DNA of 64,000 nt, taken from contig NZ_JACORT010000007.1 of the NCBI RefSeq assembly GCF_014297465.1, positions 186,001 through 250,000 of the forward strand. The letters run 5' to 3'. The stretch is from Ramlibacter cellulosilyticus (GTDB lineage: Bacteria; Pseudomonadota; Gammaproteobacteria; Burkholderiales; Burkholderiaceae_C). How positions within the stretch are numbered: position 1 is the first letter of the stretch; the number at the start of each line of letters is the position of its first letter. The notes under the pieces were generated by a model. The model was given only the letters and a program-made list of their open reading frames with translations, did no database searches and was not told the DNA's origin. Below are positions 15,603 to 60,631 of this stretch, piece after piece. A program made the position numbers and the translations under genes.

Positions 15603-16442
15603 TCAGCGTCGTCTGCCGTCCCCGTGTGGACCAGCTGCCCTCAAAGGGCTCGTACGCATGTCGAGCGCGGACCGGAGAAGGTGCAAGTCGAGGATGCGCA
15701 CGTGCTTCTTGTCCACGTGCAGGAGCCTTTGCCGCACGAGGGACGTGAAGGTGCGGCTCACCGTTTCCAGCTTCAAACCGAGAAAGCTGCCGATGTCCGC
15801 CCGCGACATGCGCAGATGGAACTCGATGGGCGAGAAGCCGCGCACCTTCATGCGCGTGGAGAGGCTCAGGAGGAACGCGGCGAGGCGCTCCTCCGCGCTC
15901 ATGCTGCCGAGCATCAGCATCAGGCTGTGCTCTCGCACGATCTCTCGGCTCATGAGGCGTGCAATGGCGCCTTGCAGCTCCAGGTCCGCGGACGAAGTGG
16001 TGCGCAAGTCCGCATAGGGAATGGCGCAGATCTCGCTGTCCTCGAGCGCGGTGGCGCTGCTGGCATACCTTCCTGTGGCCACTCCGTCCAGGCCCAGCAA
16101 CTCGCCAGGCAGGTGGAAGCCGGTCACCTGCTGCCGGCCATCTTCCAGGGTGACGCAGGACTTGAACATGCCGTTCCGCACGGCGTAGAGGCACTTGAAC
16201 ACATCGCCAGGTTCATAGAGCGTCCCGCCGAGTTGCACGCGCCTGCGCGAGAACGGCAGGCGATCGAGGCCTTCCACCTGCGCAGGGGACAGACCGGCCG
16301 GGACGCAGCAATGGCGCAGGTGGCAGGTGGAACAGGGTGCGCGTGGAAGCGCATGCGGCCTTGCAAGCCGATCGACCCCTGCGACAAACACGCTTGCGCT
16401 GCGGCCCGGCTCGCGGATTGCTGCGGTGTCGGCAGTCATCAC
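15603..16442 (-). CDS. Fnr-type regulator with complete 4Fe-4S ligand set
   Basis: A 279-residue Crp/Fnr protein. The N-terminal cysteines are Cys37, Cys40 and Cys46 in CSTCHLRHCC (x2 and x5 spacing, as in E. coli Fnr Cys20, 23 and 29). A fourth, Cys139 in DSEICAIPY, aligns with Fnr Cys122. It should therefore carry an oxygen- or NO-sensitive 4Fe-4S cluster. The cNMP-like barrel and the recognition helix RADIGSFLGLKLETVSRTF (compare Fnr ETISR) follow. It lies between the PucR-type gene and the PucR fragment, with no evident operon partner. A paralogue at 52.9 kb lacks the cluster ligands. Confidence 0.92.
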   Translation of the reverse strand: MMTADTAAIREPGRSASVFVAGVDRLARPHALPRAPCSTCHLRHCCVPAGLSPAQVEGLDRLPFSRRRVQLGGTLYEPGDVFKCLYAVRNGMFKSCVTLEDGRQQVTGFHLPGELLGLDGVATGRYASSATALEDSEICAIPYADLRTTSSADLELQGAIARLMSREIVREHSLMLMLGSMSAEERLAAFLLSLSTRMKVRGFSPIEFHLRMSRADIGSFLGLKLETVSRTFTSLVRQRLLHVDKKHVRILDLHLLRSALDMRTSPLRAAGPHGDGRRR

Positions 16443-47660: not shown

Positions 47661-48263
47661 TCACGACGACTCCTTCGGCAACAGCTGGCTGCTGTTCGAC
47701 ATGGACATGCGGCGGAACAATGCGCCGATCCAGGCCACTCCGAAGAGCACCGCCAGGACCACCAGGGAGAGCCCGAGGCGCGTCTGGTCGCCCAGCAGGT
47801 AGGCGTTGCACAGGCGCACCGGCGAATCCTGGTACAGCTGGCCGACGGCCGCCGTCATGGGCAGCACGTTCCCCAGGAAGAAGCCTTGCACGAGATGTCC
47901 CGCCCGGTGCCACGACAGCTGCAGTGCCGAGCCGCAGCCAACAAGCAGGACGAACTTCGCGAATTCCACGCGGGAATCCACCAGCGCGAGGTCCAGCACG
48001 CGGGGAACCATCGAGATCGCCAGGACCAGCGCGACTGCCAGCAGTCCCGGAATGCCGTGGTTGTTCCAGCGATCCGCCTGATGCCGGCATCGGGCGGGAA
48101 GTGCGCGCGCGAGCAGCCAACCGGCCAGGACCAATAGCGGAAACTGGAGCAGCATCTGCACGCTCATCGCCTGCTCCAGGGTCCGGCGCGCCACCGGCAG
48201 TGCCAGCAGCAACACGCCAACGCTCGCGGCGACCGCTCCCAGGCGTGGGGACGGCGTGTTCAT
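47661..48263 (-). CDS. Multi-pass membrane protein of the oxidase cluster
   Basis: A 200-residue protein with about five hydrophobic segments (for example AVAASVGVLLLALPVA, MLLQFPLLVLAGWLLA, GLLAVALVLAISMV and LGLSLVVLAVLFGVAWIG), and a conserved-looking LSWHRAGHLVQGF. I do not recognise the family. It overlaps the SCO1 gene by 4 bp and is last in the truncated-globin/CcoN/CcoO operon, so a role in oxidase assembly or copper handling is possible. Confidence 0.75.
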   Translation of the reverse strand: MNTPSPRLGAVAASVGVLLLALPVARRTLEQAMSVQMLLQFPLLVLAGWLLARALPARCRHQADRWNNHGIPGLLAVALVLAISMVPRVLDLALVDSRVEFAKFVLLVGCGSALQLSWHRAGHLVQGFFLGNVLPMTAAVGQLYQDSPVRLCNAYLLGDQTRLGLSLVVLAVLFGVAWIGALFRRMSMSNSSQLLPKESS

Positions 48264-48895
48264 CTTCCGCCTTCGGCCAGGTCCACGGCGTAGTCAAGCG
48301 CCATCTGCTGCTGCGCGATGTCGAACACGCGCATGAGGCGTCCGTCCGGAGCCACGACCAGCAGGGCGGCGTTGTGCTCGAAGTCCCCCTGCCCGAACGG
48401 AACCACCACGACCCGGAATGCGTCCAGCAGCCGTCGCGTGTCGGCCGTGCCGGGCACCCGTGCGAAGCGCCATGTGCGCGGATCGGCGCCCATGCGGGAC
48501 GCGTACGCCGCCAGGACGTCCGGCGTGTCCCGTTCGGGGTCGAAGCTGATCGACAGCAACTTCACCCGGTCCGCGGCGCTTCCCGCGGGCGCCTGCTGCA
48601 GCGTCGCCTGCATCTGCTGGAACACCGTGCCGAGCGACAGGCAGAGCGTCTCGCAATGCGTGTAGACGAAGTCCACGATCGTGACGTCGCGCCCGTTCGC
48701 CAGCACTTCCTGCAATCCGTCGTGCGGGACTCCCGTCCCTTGCAGCGACACGGGGGGCGCTGGCACCGGCACGCGAGCCACCTCGAGCCGGCGCGCGCCT
48801 TCCGCAGTCCAGGCCTGGAAGTCGTGCGTGACCCAGGCTGCGGCTGCATAGGCAGCATAGAGCAAGGCGGTGCAGGACAGCAGCGTGCGCAACAT
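48260..48895 (-). CDS. SCO1/SenC copper chaperone
   Basis: A 211-residue, membrane-anchored thioredoxin-fold protein. One N-terminal helix, then VDFVYTHCETLCLSL containing the Cu-binding CxxxC; the histidine ligand candidate is in GDFEHNAALLV. It delivers Cu to terminal oxidases (Cu-A or Cu-B sites). It follows the Rrf2 gene with the stop and start overlapping by 1 bp. Confidence 0.92.
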   Translation of the reverse strand: MLRTLLSCTALLYAAYAAAAWVTHDFQAWTAEGARRLEVARVPVPAPPVSLQGTGVPHDGLQEVLANGRDVTIVDFVYTHCETLCLSLGTVFQQMQATLQQAPAGSAADRVKLLSISFDPERDTPDVLAAYASRMGADPRTWRFARVPGTADTRRLLDAFRVVVVPFGQGDFEHNAALLVVAPDGRLMRVFDIAQQQMALDYAVDLAEGGR

Positions 48896-49356
48896 CAGCG
48901 CGCCAGTGTCTTGCTGCGTGCCTGGAAGCGCAGCGGCTTGGGGCGACCGGCAATCGCCCTTGCGGGCAGCACGTCGGCCAGGGTGATGCCGTCCAGATGG
49001 TCCATGAAGCTGCGCAAGGCGCCGTCCATCGCACCGGTCAGCGCGCAGCTGCCGTGCAGCATGCAGCTGTGGCCCGTGGCGAAGCATTCGACGATGAAGA
49101 AGTCGGGCTCCATGGTGCGCACGACTTCGCCGATCCGGATCTCCGTGGCGGGCCGCGCGAGCCGCATGCCGCCGCCCTTGCCACGGGTGGTTTCCAGCCA
49201 GCCGTCCAGGGCCAGCTGGTGCGTGATCTTCATCAGGTGCGCCTCGGAGATGTCATAGGCCGCCGCCACTTCGGCGATGGTGCACAGCCGGTCCGGATGC
49301 TGCGCGACGTACATCAACAGCCGGATGGCGTAATCGGTCATGCGTGCGAGCCGCAT
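48895..49356 (-). CDS. nsrR: Rrf2-family regulator, NsrR-like
   Basis: A 153-residue Rrf2 protein. The wing opening MRLARMTDYAIRLLMYVA matches NsrR better than IscR. Three cysteines (Cys91, Cys98, Cys104, in ECFATGHSCMLHGSC) are positioned to hold a Fe-S cluster with NsrR-like spacing (E. coli NsrR: 91, 96, 102). NsrR binds NO at its cluster and then releases DNA, derepressing NO-defence genes. It lies inside the oxidase operon and two NsrR-type inverted repeats precede that operon, so autogenous control is likely. The 17-bp gap to the cytochrome gene holds the ribosome site. Confidence 0.8.
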   Translation of the reverse strand: MRLARMTDYAIRLLMYVAQHPDRLCTIAEVAAAYDISEAHLMKITHQLALDGWLETTRGKGGGMRLARPATEIRIGEVVRTMEPDFFIVECFATGHSCMLHGSCALTGAMDGALRSFMDHLDGITLADVLPARAIAGRPKPLRFQARSKTLAR

Positions 49357-49372
49357 CTGGAAGTCCTCGTGC

Positions 49373-49975
49373 TCAGGGGGAACGGGCGGACAGCGCCTCG
49401 AGCTCGGCGCCCCCGTCGAATGGCTTGCTGCGCGGATTCTGCTTGCGTTCGGCCGCGAACAGCTGCGCGTCGAGGGGTGCCGCCTTGTTGGACCAGCTTG
49501 TGCGCACGTAGCTCGCCACTGCCGCCAGTTCCGCGTCCCCAAGCTGGGAAAACGACGGCATCGCGCCCTTGTACGCCACGCCCCTCACGGAGATGTCTCC
49601 CGCGACGCCGTGCAGCAGGATGTTGGCCAGCACGCGCGGGTTGCCGGTCGCCCACTCGGAGCCATCCAGGGGCGGAAACACGCCCGCCACGCCAGTGCCG
49701 CCCGCCTGGTGGCAGGCTACGCAGTTCGCGGTGTAGACCCGCTTGCCGTCGACCGCGCCGACGGTGGCGGGAGCCGGCCGCAGGTCGGCCACCGTGCGCT
49801 GGTCGCCCAGGCCGGGCACACCGAAGGGCTCCGACAGCAGGATATAGCCCGCTCCGGCCAGCACCATGGCGACGGTGATGCCGGCCACCAGCAGGGGGAT
49901 GGGCTGGCTGCGCTCGGTGGGATCCGCCTGCTCGCGGATCTGGGCGGGCGTCGGGGCGGGGGCATGGCTCGGCAT
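49373..49975 (-). CDS. Membrane-anchored mono-haem cytochrome c
   Basis: A 200-residue protein: cytoplasmic N-terminal 27 residues, one membrane helix (LLVAGITVAMVLAGAGYIL), and a periplasmic cytochrome c domain with haem motif CVACH (Cys85, Cys88, His89) and axial Met in KGAMPSF. It occupies the place of the diheme CcoP in a cbb3 operon but has one haem only. It may be the electron-entry subunit. Lies 16 bp after ccoO. Confidence 0.88.
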   Translation of the reverse strand: MPSHAPAPTPAQIREQADPTERSQPIPLLVAGITVAMVLAGAGYILLSEPFGVPGLGDQRTVADLRPAPATVGAVDGKRVYTANCVACHQAGGTGVAGVFPPLDGSEWATGNPRVLANILLHGVAGDISVRGVAYKGAMPSFSQLGDAELAAVASYVRTSWSNKAAPLDAQLFAAERKQNPRSKPFDGGAELEALSARSP

Positions 49976-49991
49976 GGGCCTTCCTTCTCGA

Positions 49992-50594
49992 TCAGGGTTT
50001 CGCGGGTGCGGGCAGCACCGGATAGGTTCGGTCCAGGGCCTGCAGGTACTTGACGAGATCCAGCGCCTCCGGCGTGGGCACCACCACCCGACCGACCGCG
50101 GGGCCGTAGCCGGGGGGCAGCTTCAACGGCTGCTCGCCTTCGCGCTGCGCCTCGGCTTCGTCCTTCACGGAGAACAGGAACGGGTACGAGGGCATGATCG
50201 ACTCCTTCACGTACGCGCGCGGCTGGTACAGGTGGCCGAGGTGCCAGTCCTTGCTGGGTTGCCGGGCGCCGATGTTCAGCAGGTCGGGGCCGGTGCGCAT
50301 GCTGCCCAGGAGGTGCGGCTTGTCGTGGACGTAGTCGCCGGGAACGGAGGCCCGGCCCCAGCCACGTTCGAGGTCCGGACCGAGGCTGCGGTCGCGCGGC
50401 TGCTGGCTGTGGCAGTAGACGCAGCCATTAGCAATGTAGACCTGCCGGCCGCGCAGCTGCGCATCGGTATAGGGCTGCAGCCTGGCGGGCGCCGGAACGT
50501 CGCGGACCTGCAGGTACGGCATCACGACCAGGGCGGCCGTCGCGACGCCCAGCGCCACCATCGCCCCCGATGCCAGCTTGATTTCATTTTCCAT
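49992..50594 (-). CDS. ccoO: cbb3-type oxidase subunit II (CcoO)
   Basis: A 200-residue mono-haem subunit. One N-terminal membrane helix (GAMVALGVATAALVVMPYL) is followed by YTDAQLRGRQVYIANGCVYCHSQ, with Cys58, Cys61 and His62 as the haem site, and GPDLLNIGAR and ESIMPSYPFL with the axial Met. These are standard CcoO features. Its start overlaps the ccoN stop by 11 bp. Confidence 0.92.
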   Translation of the reverse strand: MENEIKLASGAMVALGVATAALVVMPYLQVRDVPAPARLQPYTDAQLRGRQVYIANGCVYCHSQQPRDRSLGPDLERGWGRASVPGDYVHDKPHLLGSMRTGPDLLNIGARQPSKDWHLGHLYQPRAYVKESIMPSYPFLFSVKDEAEAQREGEQPLKLPPGYGPAVGRVVVPTPEALDLVKYLQALDRTYPVLPAPAKP

Positions 50595-52230
50595 ACGAGA
50601 GCTCCAGGTCCCTGGCGGGCGCGAACAGGGCCGCGCCGGTGCGCACCGGTCCGAACCGCAGCGCCATGGCCAGGAAGTGGCCGACGAAAACCAGGTGGCT
50701 CGCGACCATCAGGCTGCCCCCGACCGAGCGCCATTTCAGGTAGGGGAGCGTCACCGTCACCGACTCGATGAAGGCGCGCGCAGGATCCAGCATGGCCAGG
50801 CCCTGCAGCCAGCCGCCGACCGTGAGTGCCACGAAGTAGATCGAGATGCCGGCGGCCGCCAGCCAGAAATGCAGCGTGATGAGCCGCGGATAGGGCCACT
50901 CCCAGTTCAGCACGCGCGGCAGCATGAAGTAGATGGCGCCGAACAGCACCATGCTGACGAAGCCGTAGGCGCCGAGGTGCGCGTGGCCGACCGTGTAGTG
51001 GGTGAAGTGGGTGACGGCGTTGACGCTGCGCAGTGCCTCCATCGAGCCCTGCAGCGAGGATGCCAGGTAGACCAGGCCGCCGAACATCATGAAACGCAGG
51101 GTCGGCGACCAGCGTGCCAGGTGCATGCGCCCCTGCAGGGTGCCGCCCATGTTGATGGTGAAAGCGATCACGGGAATGACCATCATCAGGCTCTGCACGA
51201 TGGAGAGCGTGACGAGCCAGCCGGGAACGGGGCCGCCGATCAGGTGGTGTCCGCCGACCTGGCCATAGAAGAAGGCCAGGGTCCAGAAGCCCAGGATCGA
51301 GAGGTTGTACGAGCGCACCGGCCGCCCGATGATCTTGGGCAGGAAGTAGTAGATCGCGCCCACGCTCACCGGCGTGAACCACAGGCCCAGCACGTTGTGG
51401 CCGTACCACCAGTTGGTGGTGGCCTGCTGCACGCCGGTGTGCACGCCGGGCATCTTGGCGACGACGAACAGCAGCGTGACCCACAGCAGCCCCGCCACGC
51501 AATACCAGACGCTCACGTAGAGGTGCTCGGCGCGGCGGTTCACCAGGGTGAACAGCACCGGCAGGATGATCATGGCGAGGCCGGCGGCCATGAAGAGGCC
51601 GATCTGCCACGGGATCTCCAGGTACTCCATGCCGTCGCTCCAGCCGGCCGAAATGGCGCCGATGCCTGCGGCAATGCCCGTGTTCACCAGCGCGCCTCCC
51701 AGGAGGGTCCACGCGGCGCCGCGCAGTTCGGTGCGCAGCAGCCGCGGCAGCAGCCAGAGGATCAGGCCCAGGGCGGCGTTGGTGATCCACCCGTACAGCA
51801 CCGCCGTCAGGTGCACCGTGCGGATCCGCCCGAAGGTGAGCCAGCCCTGCTCCACCAGCCAGTCGGGCGCGTGCAGCTTGATCGAGGAGGTCAGGCCGGC
51901 CACCGACCCGAGCAGCAGCCAGAAGCAGGCGAAGGCCACGAACATGAAGACCGGGAGCGCGCTCGAGCGGTCGGCCAGCACGCGCGCCTGCAGGTCCGAT
52001 GGGTCGGCGACAGGGCCGTCCGCGCCGGCGGCGGCGCGCTGCAGGGAACGATGGTCTTCCGCATGCAGCGCGGGGTCGTCGACGCGGCCGACTTCGCCAC
52101 GCGCGAAGATCACCGAAGCCGCGGCCGGGTTTTCGACCAGCAAGCCCTTGCGCAGCGACCAGATGAATGCGAAGAGGCCGATGATGGACAGCAGGAACGC
52201 GGCCAGCAGGCTGAGGACGGCGCTGTCCAT
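50584..52230 (-). CDS. ccoN: CcoS-CcoN fusion: cbb3-type oxidase catalytic subunit
   Basis: A 548-residue protein. Residues 1-55 look like the assembly protein CcoS: one helix then FIWSLRKGLLVENPAAASVI and a DD tail. The CcoN core begins near residue 95, with the haem b ligand His140, Cu-B ligand His278 (WWYGHN), Tyr322 at the place of the cross-linked Tyr, His328 and His329, and His416/His418 (VGHAHLG). The Glu that lies two helical turns before the haem b3 His in classical CcoN (EGPMM) is Gln394 here. No ccoP follows. The ATG at 52230 overlaps the globin stop by 1 bp. Confidence 0.88.
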   Translation of the reverse strand: MDSAVLSLLAAFLLSIIGLFAFIWSLRKGLLVENPAAASVIFARGEVGRVDDPALHAEDHRSLQRAAAGADGPVADPSDLQARVLADRSSALPVFMFVAFACFWLLLGSVAGLTSSIKLHAPDWLVEQGWLTFGRIRTVHLTAVLYGWITNAALGLILWLLPRLLRTELRGAAWTLLGGALVNTGIAAGIGAISAGWSDGMEYLEIPWQIGLFMAAGLAMIILPVLFTLVNRRAEHLYVSVWYCVAGLLWVTLLFVVAKMPGVHTGVQQATTNWWYGHNVLGLWFTPVSVGAIYYFLPKIIGRPVRSYNLSILGFWTLAFFYGQVGGHHLIGGPVPGWLVTLSIVQSLMMVIPVIAFTINMGGTLQGRMHLARWSPTLRFMMFGGLVYLASSLQGSMEALRSVNAVTHFTHYTVGHAHLGAYGFVSMVLFGAIYFMLPRVLNWEWPYPRLITLHFWLAAAGISIYFVALTVGGWLQGLAMLDPARAFIESVTVTLPYLKWRSVGGSLMVASHLVFVGHFLAMALRFGPVRTGAALFAPARDLELSYGK

Positions 52231-52622
52231 CACGCCGCTCCCTGCTGCTCGCGCGCTTGATTCACCTGGTAGCCGTACCAGAGGCTCTCCGCGATGCGCA
52301 CGGCCAGGGCCCTGGCGCGCGAGGCCATCTCCTGGTTGCCGAGGCGGGCCGTCGTCTCCCCGAACAACGTCAGCCAGCGCTGGAACAACTCCGCGCTCAG
52401 CCCGGGCAGCGCTGCGTGCTTCGGCATCGGTGCGCCGCGAAAGCGCGCGGTGCCACGCAGTGCCGAAGACCAGAAGTCCACCATGGTGGCGAGGTGGCGG
52501 TCCCAATCCGTGATGTGCGCATCGAAGACGGGGCCGAGCACGGGATCGCGTCGCACGTCGGCATAGAAGCCGTGAACCAGTTGATGGACGTCTTCTTCCG
52601 TGCAGAGATCTGCAGTGGGCAT
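52230..52622 (-). CDS. Group III truncated haemoglobin
   Basis: A 130-residue globin (family length about 130). The N-terminal LVHGFYADVRRDPVLGPVF carries the B10 Tyr region. The proximal His is in PKHAALPGLSAELFQRWL, followed by the WYGYQVNQ end. Group III members bind O2 and NO and are linked to NO or oxidative defence. It leads the CcoN operon, downstream of an NsrR-type site at 52660, which implies NO-induced expression. Confidence 0.9.
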   Translation of the reverse strand: MPTADLCTEEDVHQLVHGFYADVRRDPVLGPVFDAHITDWDRHLATMVDFWSSALRGTARFRGAPMPKHAALPGLSAELFQRWLTLFGETTARLGNQEMASRARALAVRIAESLWYGYQVNQAREQQGAA

Positions 52623-52659
52623 GTCGGGTGTTCTCCAGAGTGCGCTTGCGCGGCATTTT

Positions 52660-52682
52660 AAGATGCATCAACGATAGATCTT
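52660..52682. promoter_or_regulatory. NsrR-type inverted repeat before the globin/CcoN operon
   Basis: AAGATGCATCA, one base, CGATAGATCTT: an 11-1-11 inverted repeat with 8 of 11 positions paired, matching the AAGATGCAT half-site of known NsrR operators. It lies about 38-60 bp upstream of the globin ATG, over the expected promoter. The Rrf2 protein encoded in this operon is the obvious binder. Confidence 0.65.
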
Positions 52683-52782
52683 CATATTTCCGGTACCGCG
52701 CAAGGGACATCGGGAGAATTGAACACAGCACCTGTACTGGCGGCATGGTCACTGTCGCCATGCAACGGTTGCGAGCCTAGAA

Positions 52783-52805
52783 TAGATTCATCTTCTATGC
52801 ATCTT
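52783..52805. promoter_or_regulatory. NsrR-type inverted repeat before the Fnr/suf operon
   Basis: TAGATTCATCT, one base, CTATGCATCTT; the right half reads AAGATGCATAG on the other strand, an excellent NsrR half-site, the left being weaker (7 of 11 positions paired). A candidate -10 TAGAAT (52778-52783) abuts it, so binding would block the promoter. The whole 303-bp region 52623-52925 holds no other gene. Confidence 0.6.
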
Positions 52806-52925
52806 TAACTTGCCGACCATGAAGCGCGCCGCCGAACTCCAGCCGCTCTCGACGACCATCAGGGGATCCGGCTCGCCGGCATTCCTCGCGCAGGCCGCGT
52901 CTGCTGCGCAGGATGGAGGCACGGC

Positions 52926-53694
52926 ATGAACCCCGCCTCCAGCCAGCCCGTGGACAAGGGCCTCGCGGCCTCGATCGCCAGTGCCTGCCAAGCCTGGCAG
53001 AGCGGGGATCCCTGCGTTCCCTGCGCGCTCGCGGCCGGCGCCGATCCATCCGGCCTGCCGCAGGTCGCGTCCAGGCGCGTGAAGCGGCGGCAGCCGCTCT
53101 ACCTCGAGGGCGACCCGTTCGTGTCCATCTACGCGGTTCGGACCGGGACGTTCAAGTCCGCGTTCTGTACCCTGGACGCGCACGAGCAGGTCACCGGCTT
53201 CCAGGTGGCGGGCGAGGTCCTGGGCCTCGATGGCCTCGGACACGGCCGCCACGCCACGTCGGCCATCGCACTGGAAGACTCGGAAGTCGTCGCCCTCCCC
53301 TACGCGGTCTCCGCGCAGGGGCGGCCGGGAGAACTGCAACGGATCCTGCCGGGGCTGCTCGGTCGCGAACTGGTGCGCAGCCAGAAGCTCGCCGTGCTGC
53401 TTTCGGCCATGGGTGCCGAACAACGGCTGGCCTCCTTTCTCCTGAACCTGTCGCGCCGGATGGAGACGCGCGGCTATTCGGCCAGCCAGTTCAACCTGCG
53501 CATGACGCGCAGCGAGATCGGCAGCTACCTGGGCCTGAAGGTCGAAACCGTCAGCCGCGCCTTCTCGGCCATGCAGCGCCGCGGCATGCTGGAGGTGAGC
53601 GGTCGCCACGTGTGGCTGCTGGATCGTCCCGCGCTCCTGCGCTTGTTCGATACGGCGGCCGCCAGGCAGCGCGCCGCACTTCCGGGGGTCCGCC

Positions 53695-53702
<8 letters not shown>
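52926..53702 (+). CDS. Fnr-family regulator lacking complete Fe-S ligands
   Basis: A 258-residue Crp/Fnr protein and paralogue of the one at 15.6 kb (shared [26 protein letters not shown]). N-terminal cysteines are only Cys21, Cys30 and Cys33, in wrong spacing, and the fourth ligand position is Val122 (DSEVVALPY). The recognition helix is [19 protein letters not shown], as in Fnr. It probably binds Fnr-type DNA without an Fe-S sensor or with a different one. It heads the suf operon, overlapping sufB by 8 bp. Confidence 0.87.
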
Positions 53703-55149
<1,447 letters not shown>

Positions 55150-55172
55150 AACGGAACACAAGGAAGCCATCG

Positions 55173-55943
55173 ATGGATACGAACCAACCCGTGCTGCAGG
55201 TGCAGGACCTGCGCGTGGATGTCGCCGGCCGCACCGTGCTGCAGTCGGTCTCTCTGCAGGTGCAGCCAGGCGCCGTGGTGGTGCTCATGGGCGCCAACGG
55301 CAGCGGCAAGAGCACGCTGGGGCTGGCGCTGGCCGGCCACCCGCGCTACCCGGTGGTCGAGGGCAGTGCCACCTTCGCCGGGCAGGACCTGCTGGCCATG
55401 AGCGTGGAAGCGCGCGCGCGCGCCGGGCTTTTCCTGTCCTTCCAGTCGCCGCCGGACATCCCCGGCGTCAAGAACAACCTGTTCGTGCGCACGGCCGTCA
55501 ACGCCGTGCGCGAAGCGCGCGGCGAAACGCCGCTGGACGCGTTCGACTTCCTCGGCGAGGCGCGCGGCGCGGCCCGGCGCCTGGGCCTGCAGGAGGCGAT
55601 GTTGAACCGCCCCGTCAACGAAGGCTTCTCCGGGGGCGAACGCAAGCGCAACGAACTGCTGCAGCTGGCGATGCTGCGGCCGCGCCTGGCCCTCCTGGAC
55701 GAGATCGATTCCGGCATGGACGTCGACGGCGTCCGTGCCACGGTGGAACTGGTAGGCGCGCTGCGCGCGCAGGGCACGGCCTTCCTGGTCGTGTCGCATT
55801 ACCAGCAGATGATCGAGATGCTTGCGCCGGATGCGGTGCTGCGCCTCGCGCAGGGCCGCATCGCGCAGACCGGCGGCCTGGAACTGGTGCACGAGATCGC
55901 GCGCACGGGCTATGCGCCCGTGCCCGAGGCGCTGGAGGCCTGA
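55173..55943 (+). CDS. sufC: SufC ATPase
   Basis: A 256-residue ATPase. GANGSGKSTLGLALAG is Walker A, SFQSPPDIPGVKN the Q-loop, FSGGERKRNELLQ the signature, LLDEIDSGMDVDG the Walker B end. It drives structural change in SufBC2D. Starts 23 bp after sufB. Confidence 0.95.
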   Translation: MDTNQPVLQVQDLRVDVAGRTVLQSVSLQVQPGAVVVLMGANGSGKSTLGLALAGHPRYPVVEGSATFAGQDLLAMSVEARARAGLFLSFQSPPDIPGVKNNLFVRTAVNAVREARGETPLDAFDFLGEARGAARRLGLQEAMLNRPVNEGFSGGERKRNELLQLAMLRPRLALLDEIDSGMDVDGVRATVELVGALRAQGTAFLVVSHYQQMIEMLAPDAVLRLAQGRIAQTGGLELVHEIARTGYAPVPEALEA

Positions 55944-57158
55944 ATGACGGACCTGGCCCGCGCCGATTCGCATGCCGCACGCGACCGTCTGGCCGACCGG
56001 GGCTGGATCGCCCCGAAGGCGGAATTGTTCCGCCACCTCCCACCGCCGCCGGCCGCCGTCTGGCTCGGTGGCGACGCGCCGCCGTTTTCCGGGGGAGCGC
56101 TCGACGACGGGTGGTCGCTGCGCACGCTGCCCGGCGCACCGGCCGGCCGGGTGGACCTGCGCTGGTACGACGCCGCGGATCCAGGGCAGCGCATCGCGCT
56201 GTTCTCGGGGCTGCCGCCGCCCGGGGAAGACGATGCGGCCCCGTTCGCCTGGGCGCATCGCGCGCTGGTGCGGCAAGGACTCCGGGTGCGCATTGCCGCG
56301 GCCGGCGGGCCCACGCTGCTGCAACTGGATCACCGCGTGTCGCAGCCCGTGGAAGCGCCGCTGCTGGTGGTGGACCTGCTGCCGGGCGCCCGCTGCGTCC
56401 TGCTGGAAGCGCACGAGCGCCAGCCGGGGCCGCCCACGGTGCAGAACCTGCACGTGTACGTGCGGCTGGCCGAAGGCGCGAGTCTGCAGCACCTGCGCGT
56501 GGCCGCTCCGCTGGCTGCCGACCGCTGGGCGCACCACGTGCACGTGCAGGTGCAGCGCCAGGCGAGCTACGCCCAGTGCCTGCTCGCCACGGGCGGCGAC
56601 TACCACCTGCAGCGCACCCTCCTCGAACTGGATGGCGAGGGCGCCTCGGCCCGTGCGGCGGGGGTGCTGCTCGCCGTCGAGGGCGGGCTCGAGCAACAGG
56701 TTCTGACGCGGCATGCCGCGGCCCGCACGCGCAGCGCGGTGGAGATGCTCGCCCTGCCGGGCGCTGCGGCCCGCGTGGTGGCCAGCGCGCACACCCGCAT
56801 CGCAGCCGGCTGCGACGAGGCCCAGGCGCGCCAGCGCCTGGGCGGCATCCCGACTTCGGGGCAGCCGCGCATCGTGCTGCGCCCGCACCTGGAGATCCAC
56901 CACGACCAGGTGCAGGCGGCGCACGGCGCGACCTGGGGCGCCCTGCCGGAAGAGGCGCTGTTCCATGCGCGCCAGAGGGGACTGGAGGAAACCGCGGCCA
57001 AGTCGATGATCCTGGCTGGCCTCGCGCGTTCGGTGCTGTCGCGCGCGATCGCGGACGACGATCTGCCCGAAGCGCTTCGCCTGGAGCTTGCGCTGGCCGC
57101 CGCCCTGGCGCGCCATCTCGGCACCACCGCACCTTCGACGGAGGCCTCCCATGGGTGA
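55944..57158 (+). CDS. sufD: SufD subunit
   Basis: A 404-residue SufD. The C-terminal beta-helix has GQPRIVLRPHLEIHHDQVQA and the His that, with SufB Cys, forms the cluster site. The N terminus is diverged and Pro-rich, and typical SufD similarity starts near residue 130 (VEAPLLVVDLLPGARCVLLE). Its end overlaps sufS by 8 bp. Confidence 0.92.
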   Translation: MTDLARADSHAARDRLADRGWIAPKAELFRHLPPPPAAVWLGGDAPPFSGGALDDGWSLRTLPGAPAGRVDLRWYDAADPGQRIALFSGLPPPGEDDAAPFAWAHRALVRQGLRVRIAAAGGPTLLQLDHRVSQPVEAPLLVVDLLPGARCVLLEAHERQPGPPTVQNLHVYVRLAEGASLQHLRVAAPLAADRWAHHVHVQVQRQASYAQCLLATGGDYHLQRTLLELDGEGASARAAGVLLAVEGGLEQQVLTRHAAARTRSAVEMLALPGAAARVVASAHTRIAAGCDEAQARQRLGGIPTSGQPRIVLRPHLEIHHDQVQAAHGATWGALPEEALFHARQRGLEETAAKSMILAGLARSVLSRAIADDDLPEALRLELALAAALARHLGTTAPSTEASHG

Positions 57159-58392
57159 CATGATGTCCGCAGCCATGCTGGCCGGCGGCTTCCACGGACT
57201 GGACCAGCGCGTGAACGACGCGCCGCTCGCCTACCTGGACAACGCCGCGACCACGCACATGCCGCTGTCCGTGCGGCAGGCCATGGACGCGTTCGAGGCG
57301 CACAGCCGCGCCAACATCCATCGTGGCGTCCACACGCTCAGCCAGCGGGCCACCGACGCGTTCGAGCAGGCACGCACCACGCTGAAGCGATTCGTCGGCG
57401 CCGGCGATGCGCACGAGCTGGTATTCACCTCCGGAGCGACCGACGCCCTCAACCTGGTTGCGTCCGGCCTGTCCGATGCCGCACATGCGGTGCCCGTGCT
57501 GCGGCCCGGCGACGAGATCATCACCACCGCGCTGGAGCACCACGCGAACCTCGTGCCGTGGCAGCTGGCGGCGCGTCGCAGCGGCGCGGAGCTGCTGGTG
57601 CTGCGGCCCGATGCGGGCGGCCGGTTGCATCCCGACGACCTGGCGCGGCTCGTGGGCCCGCGCACGCGGGTGTTCGCCGTCACCGCCTGCGCGAATGCGA
57701 CAGGCGAGCGCCCGCCTTACGAGGAGCTGCTGGCGCTGGCGGCCGAGGCCGGCGCCCTGACGGTGCTCGACGCCGCCCAGGCCGTCGCGCACGACGTCCC
57801 GGATGTTTCACGGCTCGATTGCGACTTCATGGCCTTCTCGGGCCACAAGATGTACGGGCCCATGGGCACCGGCGCGCTGGTCGGCCGGCGTGCCGCGCTG
57901 GAAGCGCTGACGCCGCTGCGCTTCGGCGGCGACATGGTGGAATGGGTGAGCGAGGCGGACGCCGGCTTCGCCGGGCTGCCGATGCGCCTGGAAGGCGGCA
58001 CGCCCAACGTGGCGGGGGCGGTCGGCCTGGCTGCCGCCGCCGACTTCATCGACGTGACGGGACGCGACCGGATCGATGCGCATGTGCGCGCCTTGCGCTC
58101 CCACGCGGTGCAGCGACTGTCGGCGCTTCCGGGCGTCACCGTGCTGGCCCCCGACGCGACGCGTTCGGCGATCGTCTCCTTCGTGGCCCGGGGCGTGCAT
58201 CCGCACGACATCGGCACGCTGCTGGACCAGCGAGGCATCGCCGTGCGCACCGGACACCACTGCGCCCAGCCGCTGCTGGCCTGCCTGGGCGTCGGTCCGA
58301 CCACGCGCGCGTCCTTCGCCATCTACAACACGCACGCCGAGGTCGAGCGCCTCGCCGACGCCGTCGCGCAGGCACTGGAGGTGCTGCAATGA
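57151..58392 (+). CDS. sufS: Cysteine desulfurase SufS
   Basis: A 413-residue PLP enzyme. YLDNAATTHMPLSVRQAM near the N terminus, HHANLVPWQ, FSGHKMYGPMGTG with the PLP-lysine, and RTGHHCAQPLL with the persulfide Cys. It supplies sulfur to SufU. Overlaps sufU by 4 bp. Confidence 0.95.
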   Translation: MGDMMSAAMLAGGFHGLDQRVNDAPLAYLDNAATTHMPLSVRQAMDAFEAHSRANIHRGVHTLSQRATDAFEQARTTLKRFVGAGDAHELVFTSGATDALNLVASGLSDAAHAVPVLRPGDEIITTALEHHANLVPWQLAARRSGAELLVLRPDAGGRLHPDDLARLVGPRTRVFAVTACANATGERPPYEELLALAAEAGALTVLDAAQAVAHDVPDVSRLDCDFMAFSGHKMYGPMGTGALVGRRAALEALTPLRFGGDMVEWVSEADAGFAGLPMRLEGGTPNVAGAVGLAAAADFIDVTGRDRIDAHVRALRSHAVQRLSALPGVTVLAPDATRSAIVSFVARGVHPHDIGTLLDQRGIAVRTGHHCAQPLLACLGVGPTTRASFAIYNTHAEVERLADAVAQALEVLQ

Positions 58393-58853
58393 GCCTTGTA
58401 CCGGACGATCTGTACCAGGACCTGGTCCTGGAGCACAAGCGCGCGCCGCGGCACTTCGGCGAACTGGCGGCGCCCACGCACGAAGCGCAGGGGCGCAATC
58501 CGCAATGCGGCGACGAGGTGCGCGTGCAGTTGCGGATCGAGGACGACCGCGTGCGCGACATCGGCTTCAGCGGACAGGGTTGCGCCATCTGCGTTGCTTC
58601 GACCTCGATGATGACCGAGGTCATGCTGGGCAAGGAGGTGGAGGCCGCCCGCGCACTGCAGGAGCGCTTCCGCGCCGTGCTGACGGGGCAGGCCGAGCCC
58701 GGGGAGATGCCGGCGGGCAAGCTGGAGAGCCTCGCTGGCGTGCGCAACTACCCCTCGCGCGTCAAATGCGCGCTGCTGGGCTGGCACGCACTGATGCACG
58801 CTCTGGCGCAGCCGGTCGCGCCGTCTCCTGCCGTGCAGGAGCGGGAGCCATGA
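58389..58853 (+). CDS. sufU: SufU sulfur acceptor
   Basis: A 154-residue IscU-type protein. Three cysteines typical of SufU are present: NPQCGDEV, GQGCAICVAST and RVKCALLGW. It takes persulfide sulfur from SufS and passes it to SufBCD. The next gene overlaps it by 4 bp. Confidence 0.93.
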   Translation: MSLVPDDLYQDLVLEHKRAPRHFGELAAPTHEAQGRNPQCGDEVRVQLRIEDDRVRDIGFSGQGCAICVASTSMMTEVMLGKEVEAARALQERFRAVLTGQAEPGEMPAGKLESLAGVRNYPSRVKCALLGWHALMHALAQPVAPSPAVQEREP

Positions 58854-59392
58854 GGCCGCGTCGCGAAAAGGTCATCTTCCGCCGGCTGGCCGAAGTCCAG
58901 CGCATTCCCGACGGGGAAACGTTCGAAGTGGATCCCGGCACGGTCGCCGAGATCGCGCAGGCGCTCGGCTCGCATTTCACGCTCGTGATCCACGGCCAGC
59001 TCGCGCGACTGACCGGCAGCGATGCCGACGCGATCGGCAAGCCGGTGCCCGCGCCCCACCCGCTCGCCGAGGACGTTGCCTCGGACCTGACGACTCGCGT
59101 CTGGCGCACGCTCGCCACCTGCTACGACCCCGAGATTCCGGTCGACATCGTCGACCTCGGCCTCGTCTACGCCTGCGACGTTGCTCCCATGGACGACGGC
59201 CGTGCGCGGGTGGCCATCCGGATGACACTGACGGCGCCGGGCTGCGGCATGGGTGACCTGCTCGCCAACGAGGTCGCGGACAAAGTGCTTGGCCTGGACG
59301 GTGTCGGCGAGGTGAAGGTCGACATGGTGTTCGACCCGCCCTGGGACCGCTCCCGCATGTCCGAAGCGGCGCAGCTCGCCCTCGGACTCTGA
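58850..59392 (+). CDS. sufT: SufT (DUF59) Fe-S maturation factor
   Basis: A 180-residue protein with DUF59 in the C-terminal half: CYDPEIPVDIVDLGLVY and LTAPGCGMGDLLANEV. Known SufT proteins help mature Fe-S enzymes. The N-terminal 80 residues are less conserved. It closes the suf operon; a 19-bp gap leads to serA. Confidence 0.88.
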   Translation: MRPRREKVIFRRLAEVQRIPDGETFEVDPGTVAEIAQALGSHFTLVIHGQLARLTGSDADAIGKPVPAPHPLAEDVASDLTTRVWRTLATCYDPEIPVDIVDLGLVYACDVAPMDDGRARVAIRMTLTAPGCGMGDLLANEVADKVLGLDGVGEVKVDMVFDPPWDRSRMSEAAQLALGL

Positions 59393-59410
59393 ACCTCCGA
59401 AGAAAGAACG

Positions 59411-60631
59411 ATGCCCCTGAACATTCTCCTGCTCGAAGAAGTCCATCCCAGTGCGGACGCCGTGCTGCAAGCCCTGCCCACTGCGCAGATCCGGCGCCTG
59501 CGCCATGCTCCCGACGCCACCGAACTGGCGCGGCTGCTGGACGACGTCGACGTGCTCGGCGTGCGTTCGCGCACGCAACTGACCGCCGCCGTGATCGAAG
59601 CGGCACCGCGCCTGCGCGCGGTGGGCGCGTTCTGCACCGGCACCAACAACATCGACCTCGACGCCGCGGCCCGTCGGGGAATCGCCGTGTTCAACGGCCC
59701 GTTCTCCAACACCCGATCGGTGGCCGAACTGGTGATCGGCCACGCCATCCACCTGCTGCGGCGCGTGCCGGAGCGGCAGGCCGCGGCGCGCCGCGGCGAA
59801 TGGATGAAGGATGCCAGGCGGTCCAATGAAATCCGCGGCAAGACCCTCGGCATCGTCGGCTACGGCAAGATCGGCACCCAGACGGGCCTGCTCGCGGAGG
59901 CCATCGGCATGCGAGTGGTGTTCCACGACGTCGAAGCCAGGCTGCCGCTCGGAAATGCCGTGGCCGCGACTAGCCTGGACAGCCTGCTGGAGGAAGCCGA
60001 CGTCGTCACCTTGCACGTGCCGCAGACTCCGCAAACACGCCACCTGATCGGCGGCGCCCAACTCGCCCGGATGCGGGAAGACGCCGTCCTCATCAACCTG
60101 GCGCGAGGGCACGCGGTCGACATCGATGCCCTGCATGGCGCACTTTCGAGCGGGCGGTTGCGCGGCGCCGCGATCGACGTGTTCCCGGTGGAGCCGGCTT
60201 CCGCCGCTCATTCCTTTGAATCACCTCTTCGCGCGTTGGACAACGTGATCCTCACGCCACATGTCGGCGGCTCGACCGTCGAGGCCCAACGCAACCTGGG
60301 CGTGGAGGTTTCGGAAAAGTTGCGCGACTACCTTGTCCTGGGTGCCGTGCGCGGCAGCGTCAATCTTCCGGAGCTGGGGGTGGGCGCGCTGCGCGGCCCG
60401 GCGCGCCTGGTCCACCTGCACCAAGACCGCCCTGGCGTGATGTCACGGATCAACGGCGTTCTCGCCGCCGCTGGCCTGAACGTGGCGCAACTGCATCTGG
60501 AGACCGGCCGCGGCATCGGGGTGGCTGCAGTGGACCTGAGCGACCGCCCGACCGCCAGGATGCTGCAGGAGCTGACGCGGATCGAAGGCACCCTCCGGAG
60601 CTTCGTCGTGGGCCAGGAGCACCCCGCTTGA
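59411..60631 (+). CDS. serA: D-3-phosphoglycerate dehydrogenase
   Basis: A 406-residue enzyme, the first step of serine synthesis. GIVGYGKIGTQTGLLAEAIGM is the NAD loop, with the catalytic Arg, Glu and His in LINLARGHAVD, FPVEP and LTPHVGGSTVEAQ. A C-terminal ACT domain (about residues 335-406; HQDRPGVMSRINGVLAAAGL) probably gives serine feedback. It follows sufT by 19 bp; serine to cysteine supply for Fe-S assembly is a reasonable link (inference). Confidence 0.93.
   Translation: MPLNILLLEEVHPSADAVLQALPTAQIRRLRHAPDATELARLLDDVDVLGVRSRTQLTAAVIEAAPRLRAVGAFCTGTNNIDLDAAARRGIAVFNGPFSNTRSVAELVIGHAIHLLRRVPERQAAARRGEWMKDARRSNEIRGKTLGIVGYGKIGTQTGLLAEAIGMRVVFHDVEARLPLGNAVAATSLDSLLEEADVVTLHVPQTPQTRHLIGGAQLARMREDAVLINLARGHAVDIDALHGALSSGRLRGAAIDVFPVEPASAAHSFESPLRALDNVILTPHVGGSTVEAQRNLGVEVSEKLRDYLVLGAVRGSVNLPELGVGALRGPARLVHLHQDRPGVMSRINGVLAAAGLNVAQLHLETGRGIGVAAVDLSDRPTARMLQELTRIEGTLRSFVVGQEHPA

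What the first reader, a model, noticed from the sequence alone, without database searches (positions are those of the whole stretch)
47661..60631. A joint NO-response, low-oxygen respiration and Fe-S assembly locus
Two back-to-back operons share one 303-bp control region with an NsrR-type inverted repeat on each side. One encodes a group III truncated globin, a CcoS-CcoN fusion, CcoO, a mono-haem cytochrome c, an NsrR-like regulator, SCO1 and a membrane protein; the other an Fnr-like regulator, sufBCDSUT and serA. NO damages Fe-S clusters and inhibits oxidases, so the set makes sense as one defence and repair unit. The combination, with suf led by a cluster-less Fnr, is not one I know as a described system.
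Basis: partly seen in the sequence, partly recalled or inferred. Interest (0 to 1): 0.8.

Follow-up and report, generated by a model that had tools for sequence, protein, structure and literature searches.

The report
NsrR-type NO-stress locus: oxidase plus SUF
This bacterium has put a nitric-oxide scavenger, an unusual oxygen-respiring enzyme and a spare iron-sulphur repair kit back to back behind two predicted switches for a nitric-oxide sensor, and related bacteria carry the same parts in other arrangements near nitric-oxide genes, which suggests a defence-and-repair programme whose parts are known but whose combination is unusual.

Summary
The 303-bp divergent region (52623-52925) holds two near-perfect NsrR-type sites (52662-52680, 52785-52803), two of only three places in the 5.5-Mb genome matching at one mismatch or less. 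The minus operon is trHb(III)-CcoSN-CcoO-cyt c-NsrR-SCO1-membrane protein; the plus operon is a Fnr lacking two cluster-ligand Cys, sufBCDSUT and serA. ISC and a second NsrR (beside qNorB) lie elsewhere, so SUF is the extra system and this NsrR looks like a local switch.
Relatives support an NO programme. SUF occurs in 37 of 299 family genomes. Of 36 SUF loci fetched, 23 carry NO-response genes, and 16 of 32 distinct sufB upstream regions hold a strong NsrR-type site. CcoSN and SUF share 24 genomes (p 6e-14; 2e-7 by genus); a serA subclade tracks both (6 of 7).
Limits: the two-operon order was seen in only two other records. Most CcoSN loci show no NO gene nearby, and many have FNR-like boxes. 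Nothing was measured. NsrR control of suf (E. coli) and of an alternative oxidase (Vibrio fischeri) is in print. I file it as a new variant of the NsrR regulon with a divergent C-family oxidase branch.

The parts
47661..48263 (-). MP: membrane protein of unknown function with about six long helices, last gene of the oxidase operon
   Evidence: No Pfam or NCBIfam hit; found by tblastn in 44 of 45 CcoSN loci L048-L092; AlphaFold mean pLDDT 94.8; best PDB fold match E 1.3
48260..48895 (-). SCO1/SenC-type copper chaperone
   Evidence: PF02630 51.8 bits, over cut-off; in 45 of 45 loci L048-L092
48895..49356 (-). NsrR-like Rrf2 regulator inside the oxidase operon
   Evidence: PF02082 119 bits; best PDB hit 5n07 NsrR with three aligned Cys; start Met taken from that alignment
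49373..49975 (-). membrane-anchored mono-haem cytochrome c in place of CcoP
   Evidence: PF00034/PF13442 over cut-off; CcoP model 38.6 of 179.95; one CxxCH by reading
49992..50594 (-). CcoO, mono-haem subunit
   Evidence: PF02433 123.4 bits, over cut-off; ccoO equivalog 109.8 of 200.65
50584..52230 (-). CcoSN: CcoS-like N-terminus fused to a divergent CcoN (C-family haem-copper subunit I)
   Evidence: PF00115 277.6 bits; ccoN equivalog 252.7 against cut-off 583; FixS/CcoS sub-cut-off; alignment to 3mk7
52230..52622 (-). group III truncated haemoglobin, first gene of the operon
   Evidence: PF01152 22.1 bits, cut-off 21; only PDB hit 2ig3
52662..52680 (.). NsrR-type site, globin/oxidase side, 1 mismatch of 14
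   Evidence: suf-trained matrix score 21.3 against 9.7 at the 95th percentile of other genes
52785..52803 (.). NsrR-type site, Fnr/suf side, 1 mismatch of 14
   Evidence: matrix score 33.9; similar element in L169 (reading)
52926..53702 (+). Fnr-like regulator lacking two of the FNR cluster-ligand Cys
   Evidence: PRK11161 Fnr model 168.9 of 228 cut-off; alignment to FNR structures; homologue in L171 lacks them too, by reading
53695..55149 (+). sufB
   Evidence: NF008773 885.9 bits, over cut-off
55173..55943 (+). sufC
   Evidence: TIGR01978 310.3 bits, over cut-off
55944..57158 (+). sufD
   Evidence: TIGR01981 164.7, below cut-off 222, but best hit
57151..58392 (+). sufS cysteine desulfurase
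   Evidence: TIGR01979 466.2, cut-off 475.1 (run from 57166); start
58389..58853 (+). sufU
   Evidence: TIGR01994 141.2, over cut-off
58850..59392 (+). sufT (DUF59/long SufT)
   Evidence: TIGR03406 217.8, over cut-off
59411..60631 (+). serA, phosphoglycerate dehydrogenase (PRK11790 type)
   Evidence: NF008759 530.1 bits, over cut-off; subclade tracks SUF+CcoSN

Best explanation
A locally controlled NO-stress and low-oxygen locus. Shown: two NsrR-type operator sequences in one divergent region, an nsrR-like gene inside the oxidase operon, and two gene runs with the stated genes. Inferred: without NO, [4Fe-4S]-NsrR represses both promoters. NO destroys its cluster and frees both. The globin then removes NO. 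The C-family oxidase with its own Cu chaperone keeps (micro)aerobic respiration going when other oxidases are inhibited. SUF rebuilds damaged Fe-S clusters beside the housekeeping ISC, and SerA feeds serine, hence cysteine, to SufS. The Fnr-like protein, lacking two FNR cluster-ligand positions, can act when ordinary FNR is knocked out by NO or O2. NsrR is made in its own operon, so the response resets itself. Because a second NsrR sits by qNorB with a different-looking operator, this NsrR is probably dedicated to this locus.
For: Sites: 2 at <=1 mismatch in the window against 0.01 expected; 2 of the 3 genome-wide matches. L169, L171, L170 and L048 carry AAGAT-N13-ATCTT elements 5' of the globin, and L169 a similar one on the suf side (reading). 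SUF operons of relatives: 16 of 32 distinct sufB upstream regions score >=12/14 against 2% of 497 other genes. With duplicates removed, a matrix trained on 25 suf sites puts 24 of 25 nnrS, 16 of 18 trHb, 17 of 20 nsrR and 33 of 98 ccoSN regions above the 95th percentile of 945 other genes. Neighbourhoods: 23 of 36 suf loci have an NO gene, nnrS within 6 kb in 16 of 34 usable ones. Co-occurrence ccoSN x suf: 24 shared of 46 and 37 genomes, OR 20, p 6e-14; p 7e-11 within nnrS-positive genomes; by genus 14 shared of 31 and 19 out of 141, p 2e-7. The serA subclade is in 7 of 299 genomes, 6 with both. ISC elsewhere in the genome, by reading.
Against: No expression or binding data. Within-genus co-occurrence is weak (observed 7, expected 4.5, 8 informative genera, from hand-made lists), so shared ancestry may explain part. 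At genus level two of the 14 shared genera (g91, g95) have the systems in different genomes. 32 of 45 family CcoSN loci and 57 of 80 named loci show no NO gene in the stretch held. FNR-like boxes are also enriched upstream of ccoSN: 34 of 98 at >=8/10 against 90 of 945 others. Own-genus genomes G097 and G198 show neither system at the thresholds used. In the order at large SUF is common (86 of 300 genomes over the cut-off), so SUF is not by nature an NO system. 13 of 36 suf loci show no NO gene. The 99th percentile of other genes in the matrix test (34.1) is above both window sites.
Confidence: 0.7

Rival explanations
1. The oxidase is an ordinary FNR-controlled low-oxygen oxidase. Globin, NsrR and suf were placed beside it by rearrangement in this lineage and share a promoter region without a joint job.
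For: Most CcoSN loci show no NO gene (57 of 80 named, 32 of 45 family); FNR-like boxes are enriched upstream of ccoSN; the contiguous block was seen in three records, the window included.
Against: NsrR sits between cyt c and SCO1 in the window, L048 and L170, L171, L180, L189, L192, L193, L214 and L238; trHb, NsrR and NnrS recur next to CcoSN in other arrangements in distant members; co-occurrence with SUF.
Confidence: 0.2
2. The CcoSN complex is mainly a nitric oxide reductase, or a dual O2/NO reductase, rather than an NO-tolerant oxidase.
For: NO gene context in part of the loci; Gln in place of Glu323 and of Trp253 of P. stutzeri CcoN, near-invariant in the family; known cbb3 oxidases reduce NO in vitro (PMC8780969, passages).
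Against: Tyr at position 251, whose cross-link to a CuB His marks O2 reductases (recalled), and the haem/CuB His are kept; dedicated norCB lies next to CcoSN in L171, L181, L186, L194 and L201.
Confidence: 0.15
3. The operators are bound by another Rrf2 protein (the second NsrR, or IscR), so the locus answers Fe-S status rather than NO directly.
For: The genome has three Rrf2 proteins over the cut-off, one of them at the head of the isc genes.
Against: The second NsrR's own operon has a GGTGTATTTCGAATGCACC site, different from the window sites; only the window NsrR is encoded in the controlled operon.
Confidence: 0.15

Closest known systems
NsrR regulon of beta- and gammaproteobacteria (Rodionov et al. 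2005, PMC1274295; sections 9 and 12 read, tables not seen)
   Same: Same operator consensus; NO-detox genes (nnrS, norB, hcp, hmp), a globin-type target in Legionella, COG4309 (DUF2249, equated from recall) in betaproteobacteria.
   Different: Sections 9 and 12 name no suf, serA or cbb3-type target; here those are the main load.
NsrR control of the E. coli suf operon (review PMC8593673, passages; it cites Partridge 2009, not read)
   Same: NsrR represses suf; SUF is the stress system beside ISC.
   Different: The review's passages also name IscR, Fur and OxyR for the stress response; here SUF is sufBCDSUT with SerA and, in relatives, often sits with NO genes.
NsrR-controlled alternative oxidase AOX of Vibrio fischeri (PMC1274295 section 12; Dunn 2010 seen only as a reference)
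   Same: An extra terminal oxidase under NsrR.
   Different: AOX is a different enzyme class; here a haem-copper C-family oxidase with a Cu chaperone.
cbb3-type oxidase (P. stutzeri 3mk7)
   Same: CcoN sequence match over 95-517, His ligands, Tyr251 equivalent; CcoO.
   Different: Fused CcoS-like N-terminus, mono-haem cyt c instead of di-haem CcoP, no CcoQ seen, SCO1 and MP in the operon, Gln at positions 253 and 323; well below the ccoN equivalog cut-off.
Group III truncated haemoglobin 2ig3 (Campylobacter jejuni Ctb, organism recalled)
   Same: Only PDB hit, E 7.8e-16.
   Different: Here first gene of an oxidase operon.

Membership tests
NsrR (Rrf2 family NO sensor) | Rrf2 domain and three conserved Cys | tested here: met
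NsrR (Rrf2 family NO sensor) | operator gATGyAT-N5-ATrCATc near target genes | tested here: met
NsrR (Rrf2 family NO sensor) | [4Fe-4S] cluster reacting with NO, derepression | not testable with these tools
   needs protein and expression work
cbb3-type (C-family) oxygen reductase | CcoN His ligands of haems and CuB | tested here: met
   aligned; near-invariant; ligand roles recalled
cbb3-type (C-family) oxygen reductase | active-site Tyr (position 251) | tested here: met
   Y323 in P0001 numbering, near-invariant in 42 relatives; role recalled
cbb3-type (C-family) oxygen reductase | di-haem CcoP and CcoQ | tested here: not met
   one CxxCH by reading, CcoP model 38.6 of 179.95; no ccoQ seen by reading, not searched by model
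cbb3-type (C-family) oxygen reductase | curated ccoN equivalog score | tested here: not met
   252.7 of 583; so a relative, not a canonical cbb3
SUF Fe-S assembly system | sufB, C, D, S with SufU/SufT | tested here: met
   (sufD and sufS below their cut-offs but best hits)
O2-sensing FNR | four cluster-ligand Cys | tested here: not met
   two replaced (Trp, Val); ligand identity recalled
Group III truncated haemoglobin | sequence match to group III | tested here: met
NsrR regulon member (each operon) | NO-dependent expression lost in nsrR mutant | not testable with these tools
   none

The most novel reading that the evidence does not exclude
A one-sensor, one-locus NO programme. A dedicated NsrR reads little more than the two operators of this region in the whole genome and switches on NO removal, an NO-tolerant (perhaps NO-reducing) branch of C-family oxidases defined by a fused CcoS, a mono-haem donor and Gln at two positions near the active site, and cluster repair with its own SerA-supplied cysteine. 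A cluster-less Fnr takes over low-oxygen control while ordinary FNR is blinded by NO. The MP would be a new assembly or protection factor of this oxidase branch.
Probability: 0.3. Interest if true: 0.72.

Novelty: new variant of a known kind. Interest (0 to 1): 0.52.

Why it matters
It predicts that in the Comamonadaceae-type genomes that hold SUF (37 of 299 sampled) the system often serves NO repair, and that a widespread, divergent C-family oxidase can be NO-induced. Both are directly testable and would matter for denitrification and low-oxygen respiration in soil and wastewater bacteria. It also links serine/cysteine supply to Fe-S repair under NO.

Tried and rejected
Fold search of MP against the PDB gave nothing better than E 1.3. 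FNR box as the explanation of the window region: only a 2-mismatch box overlapping the NsrR-type site. DUF2249 upstream regions did not score in the matrix (2 of 15), nor did SCO1 (0 of 20) or MP (0 of 14). A CcoS domain over cut-off was not found. Literature: from their listings, searches showed no paper that I could recognise as describing NsrR-controlled suf in Comamonadaceae, the CcoS-CcoN fusion or a suf-serA link; the library is open-access only. Papers looked into: PMC1274295 (sections 9, 12), and passages only of PMC8593673, PMC8780969, PMC9045102 (iscS/R raised in a norA mutant of Ralstonia solanacearum), PMC6446978 and PMC4940428. The G186 serA was taken as next to sufT because the contig end after sufT begins a serA frame; the two contigs were not joined. 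First counts of upstream regions held duplicate loci; one search recounts them without.
Full report
What is there. Minus strand: trHb 52622-52230, CcoSN 52230-50584, CcoO, mono-haem cyt c, NsrR-like, SCO1, membrane protein to 47661. Plus strand: Fnr-like 52926-53702, sufB, C, D, S, U, T, serA to 60631. Neighbouring frames overlap or lie within 25 bases of each other, so two operons are likely (inference). The 303 bp between them hold two sites matching the published NsrR consensus at 13 of 14 positions. Genome-wide, only three places match this well, two of them here, against none for the reversed pattern; the third lies inside a frame called by my script.

The proteins. The Rrf2 protein's best solved relative is S. 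coelicolor NsrR, with three Cys aligned. The globin's only solved relative is group III. The Fnr-like protein aligns to FNR with Trp and Val at two positions recalled as cluster ligands; its homologue in L171 lacks them too, by reading. Subunit I is a divergent CcoN: 252.7 bits against a 583 cut-off for ccoN. His279, Tyr323, His329 and His330 (P0001 numbering) are kept, while the positions equal to Trp253 and Glu323 of P. stutzeri are Gln, near-invariant in 42 relatives. The N-terminus resembles CcoS below cut-off in 4 of 5 members tested. The membrane protein folds confidently (mean pLDDT 94.8) but no solved fold matches better than E 1.3.

The genome. It has isc genes elsewhere and a second NsrR next to DUF2249, qNorB and NnrS, with nirK nearby, by reading; the Rrf2, COX1-type and NnrS identities are backed by family hits. 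SUF is therefore the second Fe-S system. The second NsrR's operon has a site GGTGTATTTCGAATGCACC (2 mismatches to the consensus). No second close SerA exists (best other 38% identity).

Relatives of the oxidase. In 299 genomes of the family, 46 (own included) carry a CcoSN of about 56% identity or more; this count was made by hand from the listing. I fetched 47 loci (L048-L094), including a second copy in G272 and two 37-38% relatives; one fragment (G101) was not fetched. In the 45 loci L048-L092, CcoO, cyt c and SCO1 are found in all and MP in 44. NsrR lies in 12 and trHb in 8 of the 47. Of 80 named loci (116 stretches confirmed, best 80 kept), 23 have an NO gene in the stretch held; 12 of the 80 overlap the family set, leaving 22 of 68. 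Many stretches are cut by contig ends. Members include Acidovorax, Polaromonas, Comamonas, Hydrogenophaga and Nitrosomonas eutropha.

Conservation of the order. L171 (Ramlibacter alkalitolerans) has the pair up to sufT, without serA seen, with an FmdE-like gene (PF02663) between trHb and Fnr, and norCBQD beyond MP. L169 has trHb and CcoSN facing FmdE-like, suf and serA, without Fnr; its contig ends in CcoSN. NsrR between cyt c and SCO1 occurs in L048 and in L170, L171, L180, L189, L192, L193, L214 and L238. G193 (L069, the same locus as L165) has suf convergent with MP, and NsrR-DUF2249 on the other side. L241 has suf genes, NsrR and FmdE-like near CcoSN; L230 had a partial sufB label beside MP only. 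In three genomes of one genus (L076, L079, L082) hemerythrin, DUF2249, FdxA, NsrR, serA and NnrS surround the oxidase, with trHb in two of the three.

SUF as an NO system in this family. SUF is in 37 of 299 genomes. Of 36 loci fetched (two too short to call suf, one repeating L069), 23 have at least one NO gene and 13 none; in 34 usable loci NnrS is within 6 kb in 16, DUF2249 in 15, NsrR in 10. In G186 trHb lies directly before sufB; in G272, the same genus as the window, sufT is followed by serA, NnrS and NsrR. 16 of 32 distinct sufB upstream regions score at least 12 of 14 to the NsrR consensus, against 2% of 497 other genes. A matrix trained on 25 of those sites scores the two window sites, not in training, 33.9 and 21.3; the 95th percentile of 945 other genes is 9.7, the 99th 34.1. 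Some 'other' genes share their upstream region with suf or NO genes, which I think raises that last figure; I did not test this.

Co-occurrence. CcoSN and SUF share 24 genomes of 46 and 37 (p 6e-14), also within NnrS-positive genomes (p 7e-11), and by genus 14 shared of 31 and 19 out of 141 (p 2e-7; in g91 and g95 the two systems are in different genomes). Within genera the excess is small: 7 observed, 4.5 expected. SUF goes with NnrS in 34 of 37 genomes. A SerA subclade of 68% identity or more is in 7 of 299 genomes, 6 with both systems; the exception is G210.

Reading. I take this as an NsrR-run NO-stress locus whose parts are shuffled among relatives, with SUF as repair, SerA as supplier of serine for cysteine, the globin as scavenger and the oxidase as the respiration that continues. 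FNR-like boxes lie upstream of 34 of 98 ccoSN regions, so low oxygen is probably its older cue. Precedents: NsrR and suf in E. coli (PMC8593673, passages), NsrR and AOX in V. fischeri (PMC1274295, section 12), NO reduction by cbb3 enzymes (PMC8780969, passages).

Host. By CcoSN identity the nearest named records are R. alkalitolerans (91%) and a Comamonadaceae MAG (90%), so a Ramlibacter-like organism is likely (inference).

Noticed in passing
L171:8701-9375 (-), L069:6296-6910 (-), also L139, L169, L241: An FmdE-like gene of about 210 aa recurs beside trHb, suf and NsrR in relatives but is missing from the window region. Pfam FmdE is over cut-off in L171, no hit in L069.
   Followed up: partly
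47661-48263: The 200-aa membrane protein travels with this oxidase branch, has a confident model and no solved fold match.
   Followed up: partly
15603-16277: Second FNR-like gene in the window, 46% identical to the Fnr-like leader, keeping a Cys in EICAIP; its called start may be too late.
   Followed up: no
L095:3293-10660: Own genome: nirK, NnrS, second NsrR, qNorB and DUF2249 cluster with GGTGCA-type palindromes, a possible second NsrR operator class.
   Followed up: partly
L222, L223, L227: Nitrosomonas eutropha carries the CcoSN-CcoO-cyt c-SCO1-MP module, CcoSN 70-72% identical, far from Comamonadaceae; transfer is my guess.
   Followed up: no
L171, L181, L186, L194, L201: cNOR genes lie near the oxidase module in these five named loci.
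   Followed up: no
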